DNA of 44,521 nt, from positions 1 to 44,521 of IMG/VR virus record IMGVR_UViG_3300028595_000023, one strand, 5' to 3'. Position 1 is the first letter of the stretch; each line of letters starts with the position of its first letter. The notes beneath the pieces were generated by a model that ran no database searches, was not told the origin of the DNA, and worked only from the letters and a program-made list of their open reading frames with translations. The translations under genes were made by a program, and so were the position numbers. Shown here one piece after another: positions 38,132-44,521 of the stretch. Source of the stretch: a virus.

Positions 38132-39949
38132 TTAGTAACCAGTTACAGAACTTCTCACTGGCTCTTGCTCATAATTCTCATTCTTATGACGATCATAGTA
38201 ACGCTCAATTATTTCAGGCTCTTCATACTCTGTATTTAATAATACTAATCGATATAAATTCTCGCACGCATCATCATTTTCCTTACTAGGATCACCATTA
38301 TCATCATACACCCATTCTTGTATCTGTGATATACAGTCGTTTTTCTGTGACTCATTCTGTGTTTTGAAAAAAAATAATGCAGGGATTCCATTTGGAGTAC
38401 TCAGTAACTCATTAATCTGAATAATTCCATCTGACTTCATTGACTTTAGAGGTGCTGCACTCTCTAACTCATATCCAAACTCACCCAATCGTTCTTCCAT
38501 TTTTTGAAACTCACTCTTTATCGCAATATTTAAACTCTTTTCACCAGTCTTTGATAACGGATCTGCAATTATACGATTAATTCTTAAACTATATCGATCA
38601 ACTGATTTAAGTATCTGATCTGCTATCCAATATCCGTCTCCATTTCCAACTATAGAATGACAAAAATACTTATAATTACGATCATCAGTCGCAAGCATAC
38701 ATATATACTGTTTTTTAGCTGGATGCCAGTCTATCGCAACATCTATCATCCAATGTCTCATGATATCTTTAGGTCCTAATCTTTTTAGATGTGTTTTATT
38801 ATCTATTTTTAATATAATACCTGATAAATAACTTGGAATACCTCTAATACGAGCATCCTTCTCATCATCTGTTAACTTATCAATATAATCTTTTAACCCC
38901 TCTTCACTAATACCATACCCAACGTTATCCCAAGATTCACCATTTACAGCTAAAACATCAGCTCTTGGCTCTCCATCTTCATCTACAGCGTTTACTACTT
39001 CTTTATTCACCCACGCTTCTTTTAATAACGTCATACAGAATATTTCAATACCATTATGATCAACTAGTCCACGAGCAGCAGCAATACGGTTATTTCTATT
39101 AGGCGGCTCATCGTAGAGTATAAAGTGAGTGTCAGCACCTTCAAACACTTCTGAATCAGATTTATTACTTAAAACCTCTGCTGTGCCAATTAATGCTTTA
39201 TTTTCATAAAACTCCCAATATGCTCTCACACCTAAACTATTTTTTTTACATTTAGATTCCCATGAATCAGGTAATAACTCATCAAATTTAGGTTCAATCG
39301 TTGTCTTAATATGTTTCTCCCAATCTTGGCCAACAATACGACCCTTAATTGGTAAATCATCGGTCCACCCATATTTTTCCCATACCCAACGACCTACTAT
39401 CCGCTCATCTTCCCAAGGAAAACACCCCTTTATACAACTCAACATCAAACAAAATCCTGTAAACGTTTTACTAATACGATTCCCACCTGTCATTACTATC
39501 GTCTTATAAAAAAACTGTCTTATAGCTGTAAATATTTGTTTCTGTATCGGATTGTATTCCCATTTTCCATTTCTTCCTAAATAGCCTTTTCTTGGATGAT
39601 TAAAAAATAACAACTTGTTTGCTTTCTCATATTTCTCAATCTCATTCTTTTTCTCTTTAGCTTCATGTTCAAGCTTGGCTCTCTCTAATGCCATTTTTTT
39701 CTTAACAGCAATCATGCACTTCTTAACAAGCTCAATTTCCTCATCTGTCATTTCTGCACGAGTTTTATATATCGTCGTTCCAGGAAGCCTAAACTTTTTC
39801 TCTATAAATAACTTCTTTTTATATTCAGGACTCAACGTCGCTAAACTAGGCTCTGGCGAATACTTCCTTATGTCTTCTGCTGTCAAAGAATTGATTTCTC
39901 TTAGAGATATAGAATTGTAATATTTGAAATAAGCGTCGTTGTGTCCCAC
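38132..39949 (-). CDS. terL: terminase large subunit
   Basis: 605 residues. Walker A variant TGGNRISKT (154-162), Walker B FILYDEPP with the acidic pair at 280-281, and a nuclease domain with DVAIDWHP (about 403-410) and a late DD pair (ENDDACENL). It pumps and cuts DNA during packaging. The start is GTG at 39949; an in-frame stop lies two codons upstream and no ribosome site is visible, while a promoter's -10 box stands 7 bases before, so the message may be leaderless. Confidence 0.93.
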   Translation of the reverse strand: MGHNDAYFKYYNSISLREINSLTAEDIRKYSPEPSLATLSPEYKKKLFIEKKFRLPGTTIYKTRAEMTDEEIELVKKCMIAVKKKMALERAKLEHEAKEKKNEIEKYEKANKLLFFNHPRKGYLGRNGKWEYNPIQKQIFTAIRQFFYKTIVMTGGNRISKTFTGFCLMLSCIKGCFPWEDERIVGRWVWEKYGWTDDLPIKGRIVGQDWEKHIKTTIEPKFDELLPDSWESKCKKNSLGVRAYWEFYENKALIGTAEVLSNKSDSEVFEGADTHFILYDEPPNRNNRIAAARGLVDHNGIEIFCMTLLKEAWVNKEVVNAVDEDGEPRADVLAVNGESWDNVGYGISEEGLKDYIDKLTDDEKDARIRGIPSYLSGIILKIDNKTHLKRLGPKDIMRHWMIDVAIDWHPAKKQYICMLATDDRNYKYFCHSIVGNGDGYWIADQILKSVDRYSLRINRIIADPLSKTGEKSLNIAIKSEFQKMEERLGEFGYELESAAPLKSMKSDGIIQINELLSTPNGIPALFFFKTQNESQKNDCISQIQEWVYDDNGDPSKENDDACENLYRLVLLNTEYEEPEIIERYYDRHKNENYEQEPVRSSVTGY

Positions 39950-39985: not shown

Positions 39986-40061
39986 ATATATTGCTTTTAG
40001 TTATCTATATTTTTATGTAGATACTGTATTGCTAAGTCTGTTATTCCCATATCGCATAACC

Positions 40062-40306
40062 CTTTATTTAAAATCGCTTAGGCACACTTTACCCCTACTT
40101 AGTAGTGCTATTACATAACCTACCAAGGGATAAAGATTAAGCTATTAGCAGCCTAGAACGCATTGTTCCACTTTACCACCGTCTCCCTCGCTATGGTCAG
40201 TGTGCGACCTTCCCGCTGTCCGAGTTTAGACCAAGTACTTTCATAGTCCAGCGTCCCATATATATCTATATGAGTTAGCCCCACTTTTATCGAGAAAGGG
40301 TGCTAA
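40062..40306 (-). ncRNA. candidate structured RNA of unknown class
   Basis: GC content is clearly above the genome average. Stems on the leftward strand: GGTC/GACC (40195-40209), CGCTG/CAGCG (40214-40253), GAAC/GTTC (40156-40168), GGTAAAG/CTTTATCC (40128-40177), and a closing hairpin at 40275-40306. The orientation is chosen because the leftward copy is purine-rich. It is not a tRNA, and I could not match it to RNase P, tmRNA, SRP or group I intron cores. Confidence 0.35.
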
Positions 40307-40473
40307 TCTATAACGATCTATATACATGTCAGAAAATTTAGTTTATAATAGACATGTTTATAATAGATATTCTAAGTATATCACTTAGACTTAAGAAGTC
40401 AAGTCTGCCTACCCTCTTCCCCCCCCTGGCAACTTGGCTTTTTTTGTGTCTTCAAAATATCATGAGAAACTAA

Positions 40474-40515
40474 TAAAAAGGCACAACGAAATGAGTACAT
40501 CAAAACACTGTGCCT
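40474..40515 (-). terminator. terminator of the accessory operon
   Basis: Leftward AGGCACA and TGTGCCT pair across a loop, followed by TTTTT. It ends the transcript from 44269 to 40525. Confidence 0.65.
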
Positions 40516-40524
40516 AAGAGTTAA

Positions 40525-40668
40525 TTATAAACTGGTTGAAACGCCTGATGAATATCCAAGCATGAAGCCTTTTGAATAACCTGACTTATATACTTGGCAT
40601 GCCATGAAGTAGCCAGACAAGGCTAATAACATGAAAGTGATAGTAAGTATTACATAAAATCTAAACAT
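40525..40668 (-). CDS. small membrane protein
   Basis: 47 residues, one transmembrane helix (YVILTITFMLLALSGYFM), then a Gly/Ser-rich end. GGAG upstream. Last gene before the terminator. Unknown. Confidence 0.5.
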   Translation of the reverse strand: MFRFYVILTITFMLLALSGYFMACQVYKSGYSKGFMLGYSSGVSTSL

Positions 40669-40670
40669 TT

Positions 40671-40790
40671 TTATTTACTCCATTTATAACTTATTGATAA
40701 AAACCCGAATGCTATTGTAATATCTTTAAACATAAAGCTGATACCAAATCCAAAATACCAGTTTTTAAAATCTATATCTAATCTGAGCAT
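40671..40790 (-). CDS. 39-residue hydrophobic protein
   Basis: Aromatic and Gly-rich (KNWYFGFGISFMFKD). It starts in the end of the MazG-like gene (13-base overlap). Small WYFGFG-type proteins are found in other phages, from memory; role unknown. Confidence 0.45.
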   Translation of the reverse strand: MLRLDIDFKNWYFGFGISFMFKDITIAFGFLSISYKWSK

Positions 40791-41077
40791 TCTCGTTTCC
40801 TATTTCGATCTTCTTTGTAAAATCCTTCTTCAATCAATTTAGTTGTTCTATTTATTTTGTTTAGCATGAGTTCATCATATTTAGATTTGTGTTTAAAATA
40901 AAACTGGAGCAAAACAACTAATACATCTGATGATTCTTCATAAAATTCATTACTAAGCTCTTTTCCCCAAACTAATTCCATTTCTAGTTCCATTATTTCT
41001 TCTAGCAGCTTTTTTAATTGAGTTTTTAAGCCCATATATTCAAAAATTCTTAAATACTCTTCTCGTCTATTTATCAT
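40778..41077 (-). CDS. MazG-like nucleotide pyrophosphohydrolase
   Basis: 99 residues. The metal-binding pattern of the MazG/HisE fold is seen: E27-x-x-E30 and E48-x-x-D51 (KLLEEIMELEMEL and EESSDVLVVLLQ). Such enzymes hydrolyse nucleoside triphosphates to monophosphates; phage versions may clean up nucleotide pools or lower (p)ppGpp-type signals. GGGAG upstream. Confidence 0.7.
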   Translation of the reverse strand: MINRREEYLRIFEYMGLKTQLKKLLEEIMELEMELVWGKELSNEFYEESSDVLVVLLQFYFKHKSKYDELMLNKINRTTKLIEEGFYKEDRNRKRECSD

Positions 41078-41331
41078 TAGTATTTTCTCCCGATTACTTC
41101 ATATCTGTTATATGGCTCTTTAGCACTTGCTTTAATAATACTATAATCATGAGTATTTTGAAGTTTATTAAAAAACAATCTACATTTGAGCATAAAATCA
41201 TAACTAATTGTCATATCATATTTTAATATATGGATCTCAGCCTCTTTGCCAATATCTTTTAAATCAATAACACTAATATTATCTTTTGTCAGTTGTATAA
41301 CATTCTTTTTTTGCTTCGTACGTAATTTCAT
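41077..41331 (-). CDS. hypothetical protein
   Basis: 84 residues, AGGTGA upstream, between the kinase-like and MazG-like genes and overlapping both. No family recognised. Confidence 0.55.
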   Translation of the reverse strand: MKLRTKQKKNVIQLTKDNISVIDLKDIGKEAEIHILKYDMTISYDFMLKCRLFFNKLQNTHDYSIIKASAKEPYNRYEVIGRKY

Positions 41332-41818
41332 TATGTTTCACCTCTTCTATAGCGTCATACCCTTCATCCATTGTTGGAGCTTGGTATTGATCTCTCAAAA
41401 TTTGATACACTCTAGCCCAGTAATACCTACTATACCCCCTATTGTCTTTCATTCGCCACTCTAAGTTATGACCATGTTCAATAAAATTTAAACACCGATA
41501 CTTTATTTCTAAATTAGTTGGGATTACTAGTCTTCTTTTTTCAATATATTTAATAATTTCTAATCTTTCTTTTTTTGTCATGTTAGCATCATCAAATATA
41601 ACGTTTTTTTTGAATTGTCTCATAAATGTAACACATAACTGGATAGCTATTTCATGGATCATTTTTTCTTGTTTTTCTCTGTAAATATATTCACCATGCA
41701 CCATTTCACGTATAGAGTCTTTTGACACAATACATGCGTTTAATCTTTCATAATTTTTAGCAGCCCATTTACTTTTACCAGAACCAACATTCCCAACTAA
41801 TATATAAACTCGTCTCAT
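41279..41818 (-). CDS. P-loop kinase, polynucleotide-kinase-like
   Basis: 179 residues. Walker A GNVGSGKS (9-16), then VSKDSIREMVHG and VIFDDANMTKKER, the pattern of AAA_33/T4 Pnk-type kinases that phosphorylate 5-prime ends of nucleic acids. There is no phosphatase domain, unlike full-length T4 Pnk. Its start overlaps the previous stop (ATGA) without its own ribosome site. Could take part in RNA or DNA repair after host nuclease attack. Confidence 0.75.
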   Translation of the reverse strand: MRRVYILVGNVGSGKSKWAAKNYERLNACIVSKDSIREMVHGEYIYREKQEKMIHEIAIQLCVTFMRQFKKNVIFDDANMTKKERLEIIKYIEKRRLVIPTNLEIKYRCLNFIEHGHNLEWRMKDNRGYSRYYWARVYQILRDQYQAPTMDEGYDAIEEVKHNEITYEAKKECYTTDKR

Positions 41819-42135
41819 TTTTTAAAAGGTAGAATATTAAAACTGTCACAAACACAACCTAAAGAATCACAAGGAATCAACCCTTCACTGCAAATATTCT
41901 CTTTATAATGAAAACATCTATTACACTCTGTTTCATTTAATTTATAATGTATGTCACAATATATCTGCATTCTTTTTATTTTTCCTTTTAACAAGTCTAA
42001 ATATTTAATTATTTTATCTGCATCATAAAAACAAAAATCTTCTTTATTTCGATTTTTTACGCTTAATTTCACGACTTTATTTCCACCAAGGCTATCAGAA
42101 ATACTAAGCTCTAATAATTTATAAATATTATTCAT
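41815..42135 (-). CDS. Cys-rich protein
   Basis: 106 residues. The C-terminal third has seven Cys (CDIH, ETECNRC, NICS, CDSLGCVCD), suggesting zinc or iron-sulphur binding. Coupled to the kinase gene by overlap. Unknown. Confidence 0.6.
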   Translation of the reverse strand: MNNIYKLLELSISDSLGGNKVVKLSVKNRNKEDFCFYDADKIIKYLDLLKGKIKRMQIYCDIHYKLNETECNRCFHYKENICSEGLIPCDSLGCVCDSFNILPFKK

Positions 42136-42144
42136 CTATATCTC

Positions 42145-42555
42145 CTATTTTTTCATCTTATTTCCATAAAACCAACGACAATGCTTCCTATTAATCACTC
42201 TATGCGTCCTCAATCTCTTACGACACCATTTTGAACCGTTATCATATGGACACCCTACACAATAACCATTCTCTTCAAACAACTTTTCATTAATATTCTC
42301 AATATACTGCTCAATATTTTTAATTTTATCGTTTAAACAATATACGTCTGTATTTAAATCATCATAATGTGCTTCTAATTTCTTTTTTAAACTCACGTAT
42401 TTTAAATACAGATCATCAGTATCAAGCTTCACTACTTTGATACAACTACTCGCAATACTCTTTAAATTAAATTCTTTTTGTTTTTTTAATTTTAAATATA
42501 CCAAAACATTCGTTATTAAAATAAATGCACATAGTATGCATACCACATAAACCAT
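42145..42555 (-). CDS. membrane-anchored coiled-coil protein with Cys cluster
   Basis: 136 residues. N-terminal helix (VVCILCAFILITNVLVYL), coiled coil (about 50-95) and a C-terminal cluster GYCVGCPYDNGSKWC followed by a basic end. Good ribosome site AAGGAG. Unknown. Confidence 0.55.
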   Translation of the reverse strand: MVYVVCILCAFILITNVLVYLKLKKQKEFNLKSIASSCIKVVKLDTDDLYLKYVSLKKKLEAHYDDLNTDVYCLNDKIKNIEQYIENINEKLFEENGYCVGCPYDNGSKWCRKRLRTHRVINRKHCRWFYGNKMKK

Positions 42556-42585
42556 CAGTTTTCTCCTTTCGTTGCCATAATTATT

Positions 42586-42741
42586 CTATAATACTGAAAC
42601 TGACACCACTTCATCACCATCTTGCAGTCTTACAGCCATCACACCGTTTACGTCTCTATGACTCTCTCTTACTTCATGCTCACTAAATTTCACAATCTTA
42701 CCTTTTTTTGTTACTATTACGATCATTTTTTCTGGAACCAT
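42586..42741 (-). CDS. single-blade protein resembling the DNA gyrase A C-terminal propeller
   Basis: 51 residues with GGAG upstream. Reading from residue 6, the sequence has MIVIVTKKGKIVKF, a Glu-Arg middle, NGVMAVRL and GDEVVSVS. GyrA propeller blades follow the same plan: hydrophobic strand, T-x-x-G-x-x-K, E-x-x-x-R, G-V-x-A-I-x-L, GD-x-VV. Only one blade is present, so it would have to assemble with itself or with host GyrA. It could modulate host gyrase. Assignment by pattern only. Confidence 0.6.
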   Translation of the reverse strand: MVPEKMIVIVTKKGKIVKFSEHEVRESHRDVNGVMAVRLQDGDEVVSVSVL

Positions 42742-42757
42742 TTTATTTCTCCTTTTT

Positions 42758-43231
42758 TTATTTAACTATTTCCCAATCCTCAGATAGCATGTCTGTTTGT
42801 GATGCAAGCCATGGGACAACCTTGTTGTCTGCTGTTTTCATGTAGATGTATGGTAGCCTTTGATATGTCTCTCCTTCTTTGCTTTCCCATTCTCCTTCTA
42901 CATTGCATAACCATAACCACATATTTTTTCCGTTCCATCCTTTTCTAGATACTTTACATCCTTTCTTCATAGAATCTATAGCTAAACCAAAGGTTAAAAA
43001 TTCTTCCACTCCTATCTTTCTATACGATCTTTCAAATACTTCTTTAGGACTCCATGAGACATATCCTTTATACTCTTTCGTATTCGCCTTTCCTCCATCG
43101 ATATACTCAACTAAATATCCTTCATCAGATCCATTCTCATCACTAGGCAATTCCCATCCTCTAAATTTGTTATACTCTAATCGATTCATTTCTTTTGCAT
43201 TAATTATTTTTACTCCAATATATCTTTCCAT
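42758..43231 (-). CDS. tad2: Tad2-like anti-Thoeris protein (DUF2829) with N-terminal extension
   Basis: 157 residues. The C-terminal half (about 79-157) is DUF2829: FGLAIDSMKKGCKVSRKGWN, MKTADNKVVPW and LASQTDMLSEDWEI. Members called Tad2 sequester the cyclic ADP-ribose signal of Thoeris defence. The N-terminal half (YIGVKIINAKEMNRLEYNKF...GYVSWSPKEVF) is a second conserved phage domain that often precedes DUF2829. Ribosome site GGAG. Confidence 0.8.
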   Translation of the reverse strand: MERYIGVKIINAKEMNRLEYNKFRGWELPSDENGSDEGYLVEYIDGGKANTKEYKGYVSWSPKEVFERSYRKIGVEEFLTFGLAIDSMKKGCKVSRKGWNGKNMWLWLCNVEGEWESKEGETYQRLPYIYMKTADNKVVPWLASQTDMLSEDWEIVK

Positions 43232-43241
43232 GATGTTTCTC

Positions 43242-43589
43242 CTAATTCTTTGATTCTTTTTGACAATCCTTCAATTCGTCGTATGCTTCTTCGTATATCT
43301 CTAACGCAGATGTCATGCTTCGAGAGAGAGACTCCACTACGTCCGAGATTTTGTCCGATACTTCCTTGCTGACTAAGGAGATTTGTCGACCTTGGTTCAT
43401 ATGTTTGCCGATAAGCAGCAACTTGAGCAAATCTAACAGCTTCACGCTGAGCTTGTAAAAAACCAACAGAATTACTAAAATTTTCATCATTCCGTATATC
43501 ACGTACGTCACGAGTCCACATAATCCAATAACACCTCCAGTCTTTATTAATTCAACTAACCCCTCCATAATCTTTACATAAATATCCAT
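43242..43589 (-). CDS. membrane protein with C-terminal helix
   Basis: 115 residues from the ATG at 43589, with AGGTGA upstream (the GTG at 43601 lies inside that site). Two hydrophobic stretches (about 15-30 and 37-60) then a charged helix. Holin-like layout, but in the accessory operon. Unknown. Confidence 0.55.
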   Translation of the reverse strand: MDIYVKIMEGLVELIKTGGVIGLCGLVTYVIYGMMKILVILLVFYKLSVKLLDLLKLLLIGKHMNQGRQISLVSKEVSDKISDVVESLSRSMTSALEIYEEAYDELKDCQKESKN

Positions 43590-43609
43590 ATAATTAATCA
43601 CCTCACTTT

Positions 43610-43813
43610 TTAATCAAATTTCTTTCCACCACATATATAATTTAACTTTATTTTTTCAATAGTCATTTTTAATGCATCACTAAACACCTCCCGACTTAAT
43701 ATATCCACTCTGTCAAATTTATCCCCAATATAACAATAATATTTACCACCACCACTTATTGTGATCACTGTATCTAAAATCCTCCCACCTTTTAAATCTG
43801 TAAACGAATTCAT
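43610..43813 (-). CDS. hypothetical protein
   Basis: 67 residues from the ATG at 43813, which overlaps the stop of the tiny membrane gene (TAATG). Contains a Gly-rich GGGKYYCYIG segment. Unknown. Confidence 0.55.
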   Translation of the reverse strand: MNSFTDLKGGRILDTVITISGGGKYYCYIGDKFDRVDILSREVFSDALKMTIEKIKLNYICGGKKFD

Positions 43814-43890
43814 TAAAAAAAGAACCACAAACAAAGTACGCCCATTAAAATTACAAACACTACTGCATCGTCTTTAGTATATAAATTCAT
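43813..43890 (-). CDS. 25-residue membrane peptide
   Basis: AGGGGG ribosome site, short polar start then a hydrophobic run ending FFF. Coupled to the next gene through TAATG. Unknown. Confidence 0.45.
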   Translation of the reverse strand: MNLYTKDDAVVFVILMGVLCLWFFF

Positions 43891-44079
43891 TTAACCCCCT
43901 ATATCTAATCTCTCCATCAATTCTCTATAACCATCTACTTGCCTCTGTAACTCTTGATTCTCTTCTCTTAACTCTATACACTGGTCAAGAAAACGATCCT
44001 TTGATTTTAACTCAGCTCTATATCTATGATAAAACACAAAACACACTATTATTAACATAAAAATTACTAAGTTTTTCAT
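43891..44079 (-). CDS. membrane protein with coiled coil
   Basis: 62 residues from the ATG at 44079, with AAGGAGAG upstream. N-terminal helix (LVIFMLIIVCFVFY), then a coiled coil (ELREENQELQRQV). Layout like small spanin or i-spanin proteins, unproven. Confidence 0.6.
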   Translation of the reverse strand: MKNLVIFMLIIVCFVFYHRYRAELKSKDRFLDQCIELREENQELQRQVDGYRELMERLDIGG

Positions 44080-44116
44080 ACTACTCTCCTTTCGCAATCG
44101 ATACATATGTATCCAA

Positions 44117-44269
44117 TCACATTTTATTTATAATCTCCTTTTCTTTAACATCCATCAGTAAGTCTCTAACACCTAACATCACTTTCTTATACCCAGAACT
44201 ATAGCCGCTTAAATAAAGCACAGCCACTAATACTATTATTATCATTATTATGAATACCGTTGCCACCAT
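44117..44269 (-). CDS. small membrane protein, first of the accessory operon
   Basis: 50 residues, one hydrophobic helix (VFIIMIIIVLVAVLYL) and a charged tail. No ribosome site; the -10 box of a promoter is 6 bases upstream, so it may be translated from a leaderless message. Confidence 0.5.
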   Translation of the reverse strand: MVATVFIIMIIIVLVAVLYLSGYSSGYKKVMLGVRDLLMDVKEKEIINKM

Positions 44270-44275
44270 AAACAC

Positions 44276-44304
44276 ACTATAACATATCAAAGAAGCTCAT
44301 ACAA
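44276..44304 (-). promoter_or_regulatory. promoter of the accessory operon
   Basis: Leftward TTGTAT (44299-44304), 17-base spacer, TATAGT (44276-44281). The first ATG follows after 6 bases. It lies near the right genome end, so the operon does not depend on transcription across the terminal repeat. Confidence 0.6.
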
Positions 44305-44313
44305 GTGATTTAG

Positions 44314-44346
44314 TACCCCTGGGAAACTTGATAAAACCCAGGGGTA
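44314..44346. other. perfect 10-bp hairpin near the right end
   Basis: TACCCCTGGG (44314-44323) and CCCAGGGGTA (44337-44346) pair across a 13-base loop. No T-tract follows on either strand. It shares the CCCAGGGG core with the terminal repeat, so it may be part of an end-recognition site. Confidence 0.65.
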
Positions 44347-44379
44347 TGCAAAAAAAAGTAACCAGCTATTACATAATAC

Positions 44380-44521
44380 GCCTTTTTAGTTTTTTTTTAA
44401 ATATAGCAACTAAGAATCTTATATATCAAAGGGGCCTTTTGTTTTTTTCTAAGTGGAGTGTGGGAGTATCCCTACTAGTACTAAGGGGTATCCCCCAGGG
44501 GGGGGGTGATCCTCCGAGACC
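44380..44521. repeat. right copy of direct terminal repeat
   Basis: 142 bases matching 1-141 except for one extra G in the G tract (9 instead of 8). Confidence 0.9.

What the first reader, a model, noticed from the sequence alone, without database searches (positions are those of the whole stretch)
42586..42741. Free-standing single blade of a gyrase A-like propeller
A 51-residue gene with its own ribosome site follows the blade pattern of the GyrA C-terminal domain, which wraps DNA. A one-blade protein might bind DNA, insert in host GyrA, or assemble as a ring. I know of no described phage gyrase modulator of this design.
Basis: partly seen in the sequence, partly recalled or inferred. Interest (0 to 1): 0.7.

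Follow-up and report, generated by a model that had tools for sequence, protein, structure and literature searches.

The report
Phage gene for one gyrase blade
A virus of bacteria carries a tiny gene encoding just one of the six DNA-gripping blades of the host enzyme gyrase, a cut-down part also seen in a second virus, which may help the virus bind DNA or interfere with gyrase.

Summary
The 51-codon gene at 42586-42741 (-) is real and is a stand-alone GyrA beta-pinwheel repeat. Pfam DNA_gyraseA_C matches at 46.4 bits (cut-off 27). NCBI's whole-GyrA models place it at one spot, the fourth blade, and blade profiles built here agree (61 bits against 34 for the next blade). AlphaFold2 folds it like a GyrA blade with or without relatives. 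It keeps both blade-4 arginines that a Salmonella GyrA study found important for DNA binding. It sits in a tight operon beside a Tad2-like anti-defence gene, and the record shows no other gyrase part. A second, otherwise dissimilar virus contig carries the same design; no third single-blade gene was found in the scans run. As a by-product, two-blade versions turned up in 12 of 61 genomes of one bacterial phylum. Function is not shown. Because pinwheel blades swap a hairpin with the next blade, a lone blade needs a partner: itself (a DNA-binding ring or arc; my favourite) or the host's GyrA. New variant of a known kind.

The parts
42586..42741 (-). Free-standing single GyrA blade-4-like beta-pinwheel repeat, 51 aa (stop codon included in the coordinates)
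   Evidence: PF03989 46.4 bits; NCBIfam gyrA position 650-696; AF2 and Foldseek/VIA; codon score
42749..42755 (-). Ribosome-binding site AAAGGAG, 7 nt before the ATG
   Evidence: read from the sequence
42655..42669 (-). Codons for R25 (42667-42669) and R29 (42655-42657), equivalent to S. Typhi GyrA R712 and R716
   Evidence: alignment with 5ZTJ; roles of R712 and R716 in PMC7210945; R29 in 44 of 44 and R25 in 39 of 44 rows of A2
42758..43231 (-). Context: gene directly upstream, Tad2-like (Thoeris anti-defence 2-like), 157 aa
   Evidence: PF11195 89.5 bits; phrog_872 1.4e-59
42145..42555 (-). Context: gene directly downstream, 136 aa, unknown

Best explanation
It is a phage-encoded, detached fourth blade of the GyrA C-terminal pinwheel, kept as an independent gene. 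SHOWN: homology to GyrA blade 4, stand-alone gene structure, predicted blade fold, both DNA-contact arginines kept, recurrence in a second virus. INFERRED: in a pinwheel the middle two strands of each repeat complete the sheet of the next blade, so one repeat alone leaves this hairpin without its partner sheet. Several copies would therefore pass hairpins head to tail and build a small ring or arc of identical DNA-contacting blades. That mini-pinwheel would bind and bend phage or host DNA, and so either mask DNA from host gyrase wrapping or change local DNA shape during infection. My confidence is about 0.95 for the identity and about 0.4 for self-assembly with DNA binding; the figure given is for the whole statement.
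For: Identity; fold. Both phage blades map to the same GyrA stretch (650-696 and about 652-700 in NCBIfam gyrA models). R29 (S. Typhi R716, whose alanine mutant lost DNA binding in gel shifts) and R25 (R712) are kept in both phage blades. Net charge 0 and +2 lies in the range of real blade 4s (mean +0.85, -5 to +8, n=39). Strands B and C of a pinwheel repeat belong to the next blade (PMC3797127, section read); with the alignment, AF2 gives strands only at 6-11, 16-20 and 45-50 and leaves 26-44 as coil. No other gyrase part in either virus record. Cells have two-blade stand-alone versions, so detached pinwheel modules can be retained.
Against: No oligomer or complex could be modelled, so self-assembly is inference. 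AF2 gives a fairly confident monomer (pLDDT 85.8 and 80.4), so a monomer may be stable enough. The single-sequence model has two short bridges inside residues 29-35. The window blade has no net positive charge and lacks the GyrA-box. A residue that is nearly always G in the family (position 28) is H here. [quoted passage not shown]
Confidence: 0.42

Rival explanations
1. Host-gyrase (or topo IV) modulator by hairpin invasion: the phage blade donates its hairpin to, or accepts one from, an open edge of the host GyrA/ParC pinwheel and acts as an extra or substitute blade, changing DNA wrapping and supercoiling.
For: Same fold and same blade position as GyrA; pinwheels occur in open C-shaped or spiral forms with free edges (PMC3797127); small phage gyrase inhibitors of about 50 aa exist (Igy; PMC10886550 passages); neighbour is a Tad2-like counter-defence gene.
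Against: No complex prediction was possible; the host is unknown, so its GyrA could not be compared; retained DNA-contact arginines are not required by this model.
Confidence: 0.3
2. Decoy or counter-defence role: the protein imitates gyrase to titrate a host factor (toxin, defence sensor or nucleoid protein) that recognises the GyrA C-terminal domain.
For: Directly beside a Tad2-like gene in a cluster of small genes.
Against: No defence system that reads the GyrA CTD is known to me; PADLOC has no match for it or the five neighbours and relatives tried; L001's blade sits in a different neighbourhood (primase-helicase, RNA repair genes).
Confidence: 0.1
3. Non-functional captured fragment of a host gyrA gene, translated but without a role.
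For: Rare: one other example found; phage and bacterial genes exchange readily (general knowledge).
Against: Good ribosome site, coding-like codon use, exact blade boundaries with no remnants of neighbouring blades, conserved core and arginines in two viruses, compact operon packing.
Confidence: 0.15

Closest known systems
GyrA C-terminal domain (PF03989 repeats; beta-pinwheel; PDB 1SUU, 1ZI0, 5ZTJ, 3L6V)
   Same: Sequence (best 53% identity over 45 columns to a GyrA blade 4), predicted blade fold, blade-4 DNA-binding arginines
   Different: One blade instead of six; no GyrA-box; not fused to the GyrA catalytic part; in a virus record without PF00521 or PF00204 matches
Long GyrA-like genes of large phages (seen among viral contigs, e.g. 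L007, L023, L078)
   Same: Phage-carried, contain the same blade type
   Different: A-subunit-sized frames of about 780-800 aa; the window gene is 51 aa
Phage gyrase inhibitors Igy (LUZ24) and Gip (C. glutamicum prophage)
   Same: Tiny phage proteins tied to gyrase (PMC10886550, passages)
   Different: Igy is proposed to be a negatively charged DNA mimic acting on GyrB; the passages describe neither as a GyrA blade; no gyrase effect is shown here
Two-blade stand-alone pinwheel proteins of Armatimonadetes-type genomes (L163, L384-L394; found here)
   Same: Detached GyrA pinwheel repeats with own start, ending right after a blade
   Different: Two blades (3+4 or 5+6 type), bacterial genomes, most beside a full-size GyrA frame
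Beta-propellers assembled from identical short chains (Ph1500, engineered fragments)
   Same: Idea of building a ring from chains with few blades
   Different: True propellers, not pinwheels; known to me from passages and reference listing of PMC9218822 only

Membership tests
PF03989 DNA_gyraseA_C repeat | Profile score over the curated cut-off (27 bits) | tested here: met
   46.4 bits, E 2.6e-12, positions 2-46 of 48; the L001 blade 56.2 bits
PF03989 DNA_gyraseA_C repeat | Blade fold | tested here: met
   AF2 pLDDT 85.8 and 80.4 without relatives; Foldseek ranks 1-13 all GyrA/ParC; VIA ranks 1-15 all GyrA/ParC, Z 5.6 to 3.4, next 2.7. Z is low because the chain is short; prediction only
GyrA C-terminal domain (six-blade pinwheel) | Several consecutive blades | tested here: not met
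   one PF03989 match in the record
GyrA C-terminal domain (six-blade pinwheel) | GyrA-box in the first blade | tested here: not met
   motif absent (the simple pattern used found the box in only 11 of 39 real blade 1s, so it is strict)
GyrA C-terminal domain (six-blade pinwheel) | Fused to the catalytic A-subunit part (PF00521) | tested here: not met
   no PF00521 match in the record; record may be incomplete
GyrA C-terminal domain (six-blade pinwheel) | Blade-4 DNA-contact arginines | tested here: met
   R25 and R29 align with S. Typhi R712 and R716
GyrA C-terminal domain (six-blade pinwheel) | Binds and wraps DNA | not testable with these tools
   needs protein
Phage-encoded gyrase inhibitors (Igy, Gip) | Inhibits host gyrase | not testable with these tools
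   needs assay; host unknown
Phage-encoded gyrase inhibitors (Igy, Gip) | Sequence relationship to Igy or Gip | not tested
   their sequences were not fetched
Oligomeric ring built from single blades | Homo-oligomerisation | not testable with these tools
   only single chains can be predicted here

The most novel reading that the evidence does not exclude
Detached gyrase blades are a recurring building kit: phages keep one blade, some bacteria keep two, and the copies self-assemble by hairpin swapping into homo-oligomeric mini-pinwheels that wrap DNA without any topoisomerase, or plug into the host's GyrA to reset supercoiling. The phage protein would be the smallest natural DNA-wrapping pinwheel subunit.
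Probability: 0.3. Interest if true: 0.85.

Novelty: new variant of a known kind. Interest (0 to 1): 0.6.

Why it matters
A natural one-blade pinwheel makes two questions directly testable: whether a single GyrA repeat can fold and assemble by itself (and so how the six-blade domain may have arisen), and whether a phage can steer host DNA supercoiling with a 51-residue piece of the host's own enzyme. It would add a type of phage gyrase modulator different from Igy and Gip, and could give a compact DNA-bending module.

Tried and rejected
Remnant of a broken gyrA: rejected, one blade only and no PF00521 or PF00204 match in the record.

Annotated phages as a source of relatives: tblastn of the window blade in INPHARED gave 4 weak records. 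The two I opened (H1, H4) lie in full GyrA frames of 824 and 839 aa; H2 and H3 were not opened under those ids. tblastn of the L001 blade gave 50 records: I opened 11; all 11 lie in frames of 203 to 727 aa, each cut by the stretch end. Of the other 39 (10 not even listed), some are annotated gyrA or terminase; the rest I did not check. Plasmids: two weak records, not opened.

L006 is a terminase-like gene that shares a short stretch by chance. Terminase search for relatives of the window phage: none in IMG/VR, one weak phage record; portal: 18 records at best 31% identity. No near relative of the phage was found, so conservation of the gene among close relatives could not be tested.

Common ancestry of the window and L001 blades: unresolved; 46 columns, AU test p 0.42; their mutual score (107) is below each one's best GyrA score (125 and 123). 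Independent captures are possible.

My own blade profiles come from GyrAs found mostly with a motif derived from the query, which could favour blade 4; the independent NCBIfam models gave the same place.

Promoter and terminator scan 40000-44521: 34 promoter-like sites against 23.5 expected, one terminator-like site against 1.0; uninformative. Viral fold library: best rows unconvincing apart from topoisomerase A subunits. Single-sequence model in Foldseek: GyrA rows lead but E about 0.5 and mixed with unrelated small proteins. PADLOC: no match. Comparison of the two viral contigs: 345 against 240 frames, E 0.01 or better only for the blade and for one pair of frames that, I infer, run antisense to genes. 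The first genome-contig scan confirmed nothing.

Full report
OBSERVATION. The minus-strand ORF 42741..42586 encodes 51 residues. It has an AAAGGAG site 7 nt before ATG, lies 16 nt behind the stop of the preceding gene and ends 30 nt before the next ATG. Its codon log-odds (+0.34 per codon) match four neighbours (0.14 to 0.39), and the other five frames of the same DNA are negative. Pfam gives one confident family, PF03989 DNA_gyraseA_C, 46.4 bits against a cut-off of 27, E 2.6e-12, nearly the whole repeat. phmmer against the PDB gives 13 sequences at E 10 or better, 12 named DNA gyrase subunit A and one topoisomerase IV, the best at 2e-17. The spaced blade motif occurs once in the window and in 0 of 100 shuffles.

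WHICH BLADE. The window blade scores 60.9 bits as blade 4, next best blade 6 with 34.1; the L001 blade 65.2 and 45.3. Most of these GyrAs had been found by a motif derived from the query, a possible bias, so an independent check matters: NCBIfam GyrA models TIGR01063 and NF004043 align the window protein to positions 650-696 and the L001 protein to about 652-700. In E. coli GyrA the matched stretch is 693-736.

FOLD. AlphaFold2 with 44 rows gives pLDDT 85.8, strands 6-11, 16-20, 45-50 and a short helix 21-25. Those rows are mostly GyrA and could steer the model; without them pLDDT is 80.4 with the same three strands. The second look aligns GyrA/ParC chains at ranks 1 to 15 (Z 5.6 to 3.4), then unrelated chains from 2.7. 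Foldseek on the single-sequence model has GyrA domains leading, but weakly.

DNA CONTACT RESIDUES. In S. Typhi GyrA, R716 (blade 4) to Ala lost DNA binding in gel shifts and R712 to Ala weakened it (PMC7210945, abstract and passages). The 5ZTJ alignment pairs R25 and R29 of the window protein with the two arginines four residues apart, which I identify as R712 and R716 from their spacing and from E. coli numbering. Both are kept in L001. Position 29 is R in 44 of 44 rows and 25 is R in 39 of 44. Net charge is 0 (window) and +2 (L001); 39 GyrA blade 4s average +0.85 (range -5 to +8).

CONTEXT. The record is a 44.5 kb virus record of unknown host. The gene upstream is Tad2-like (PF11195, 89.5 bits; phrog_872); further down the same strand are a polynucleotide-kinase-like gene, the 605-residue gene I take for the terminase (no profile match), and the portal gene. 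There is one PF03989 match in the record, and no PF00521 or PF00204 match in it or in L001's record.

RELATIVES. A scan of IMG/VR with the window protein returned one relative: contig IMGVR_UViG_3300017989_004145 (L001), 43% identical over 47 residues. There it is also a stand-alone gene (ATG at 2953, 53 aa, in a frame of 72), the only PF03989 match in its 21 kb record, near a primase-helicase, RtcB, a nucleotidyltransferase and an endolysin-like gene. A frame-by-frame comparison of the two contigs found little else in common. In 36,804 closed frames of 35-160 aa from all loci then held, 8 matched a blade profile: the L001 gene three times (same contig), the window gene, one two-blade frame (L163) and three decayed-looking frames of L247. 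In 99 Clostridia genomes all 63 matches lay in frames of 722 to 964 aa. These patterns need a particular start context and spacing, so more single-blade genes may exist.

TWO-BLADE COUSINS IN BACTERIA. L163, an Armatimonadetes MAG, has a stand-alone protein of about 101 residues from its likely ATG with two blades (GyrA 702-795). Among 61 genomes of its phylum, 12 hold a matching frame of only 98 to 140 aa; 10 of those 12 also show a frame of 830 to 1276 aa, the size of a full A subunit or more. The 11 fetched ones mostly have an ATG behind a GGAG-type site and end right after the second blade; three of them (L388, L389, L393) carry a blade-4-type second blade. L393 aligns to GyrA 605-695. In 81 genomes of a Paenibacillus-centred phylum sample none of the listed matches was in a frame under 394 aa, but that list was cut.

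MECHANISM. [quoted passage not shown] A single repeat therefore lacks the partner for its hairpin; in the model with relatives residues 26-44 form no strand. Either copies swap hairpins among themselves or the hairpin goes into the edge of a host pinwheel. Retained DNA-contact arginines make the first, DNA-binding reading slightly more likely to me. Igy and Gip show that tiny phage proteins can control gyrase (PMC10886550, passages). None of this is shown for the present protein.

PRINT. Searches for phage with gyrase and DNA_gyraseA_C (3 papers, on other topics by their titles), phage-encoded gyrase inhibitors, pinwheel with single blade or gyrase, GyrA C-terminal domain with stand-alone (0), truncated GyrA propeller (0), PF03989 with phage (0), pinwheel with bacteriophage (15 papers, 12 listed) and phage proteins binding GyrA (5) gave no listed title or abstract describing a stand-alone blade. 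Only openly licensed papers are held, and most hits were seen as listings.

VERDICT. Real, rare, structurally well identified, functionally open. New variant of a known kind.

Noticed in passing
   Followed up: partly
L247 (minus strand, three short frames): Three short frames with decayed-looking GyrA blade-6 pieces beside normal gyrA-like frames: perhaps repeated partial gyrA copies.
   Followed up: no
window 42758-43231 (-): Tad2-like (Thoeris anti-defence 2-like) gene with a long N-terminal part before the PF11195 domain, directly upstream of the blade gene.
   Followed up: no
viral contigs L007, L016, L023, L078 and others: Many viral contigs carry long GyrA-like A-subunit frames whose blade 4 lacks the first of the two arginines.
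   Followed up: no
window 38132-39949 (-): 605-residue gene in terminase position without any PHROG or Pfam match and no IMG/VR relative found: a divergent phage.
   Followed up: partly
INPHARED records MT836067, MT838834 and similar: Unverified fecal 'Bacteriophage sp.' records contain full GyrA frames and look like bacterial sequence.
   Followed up: partly
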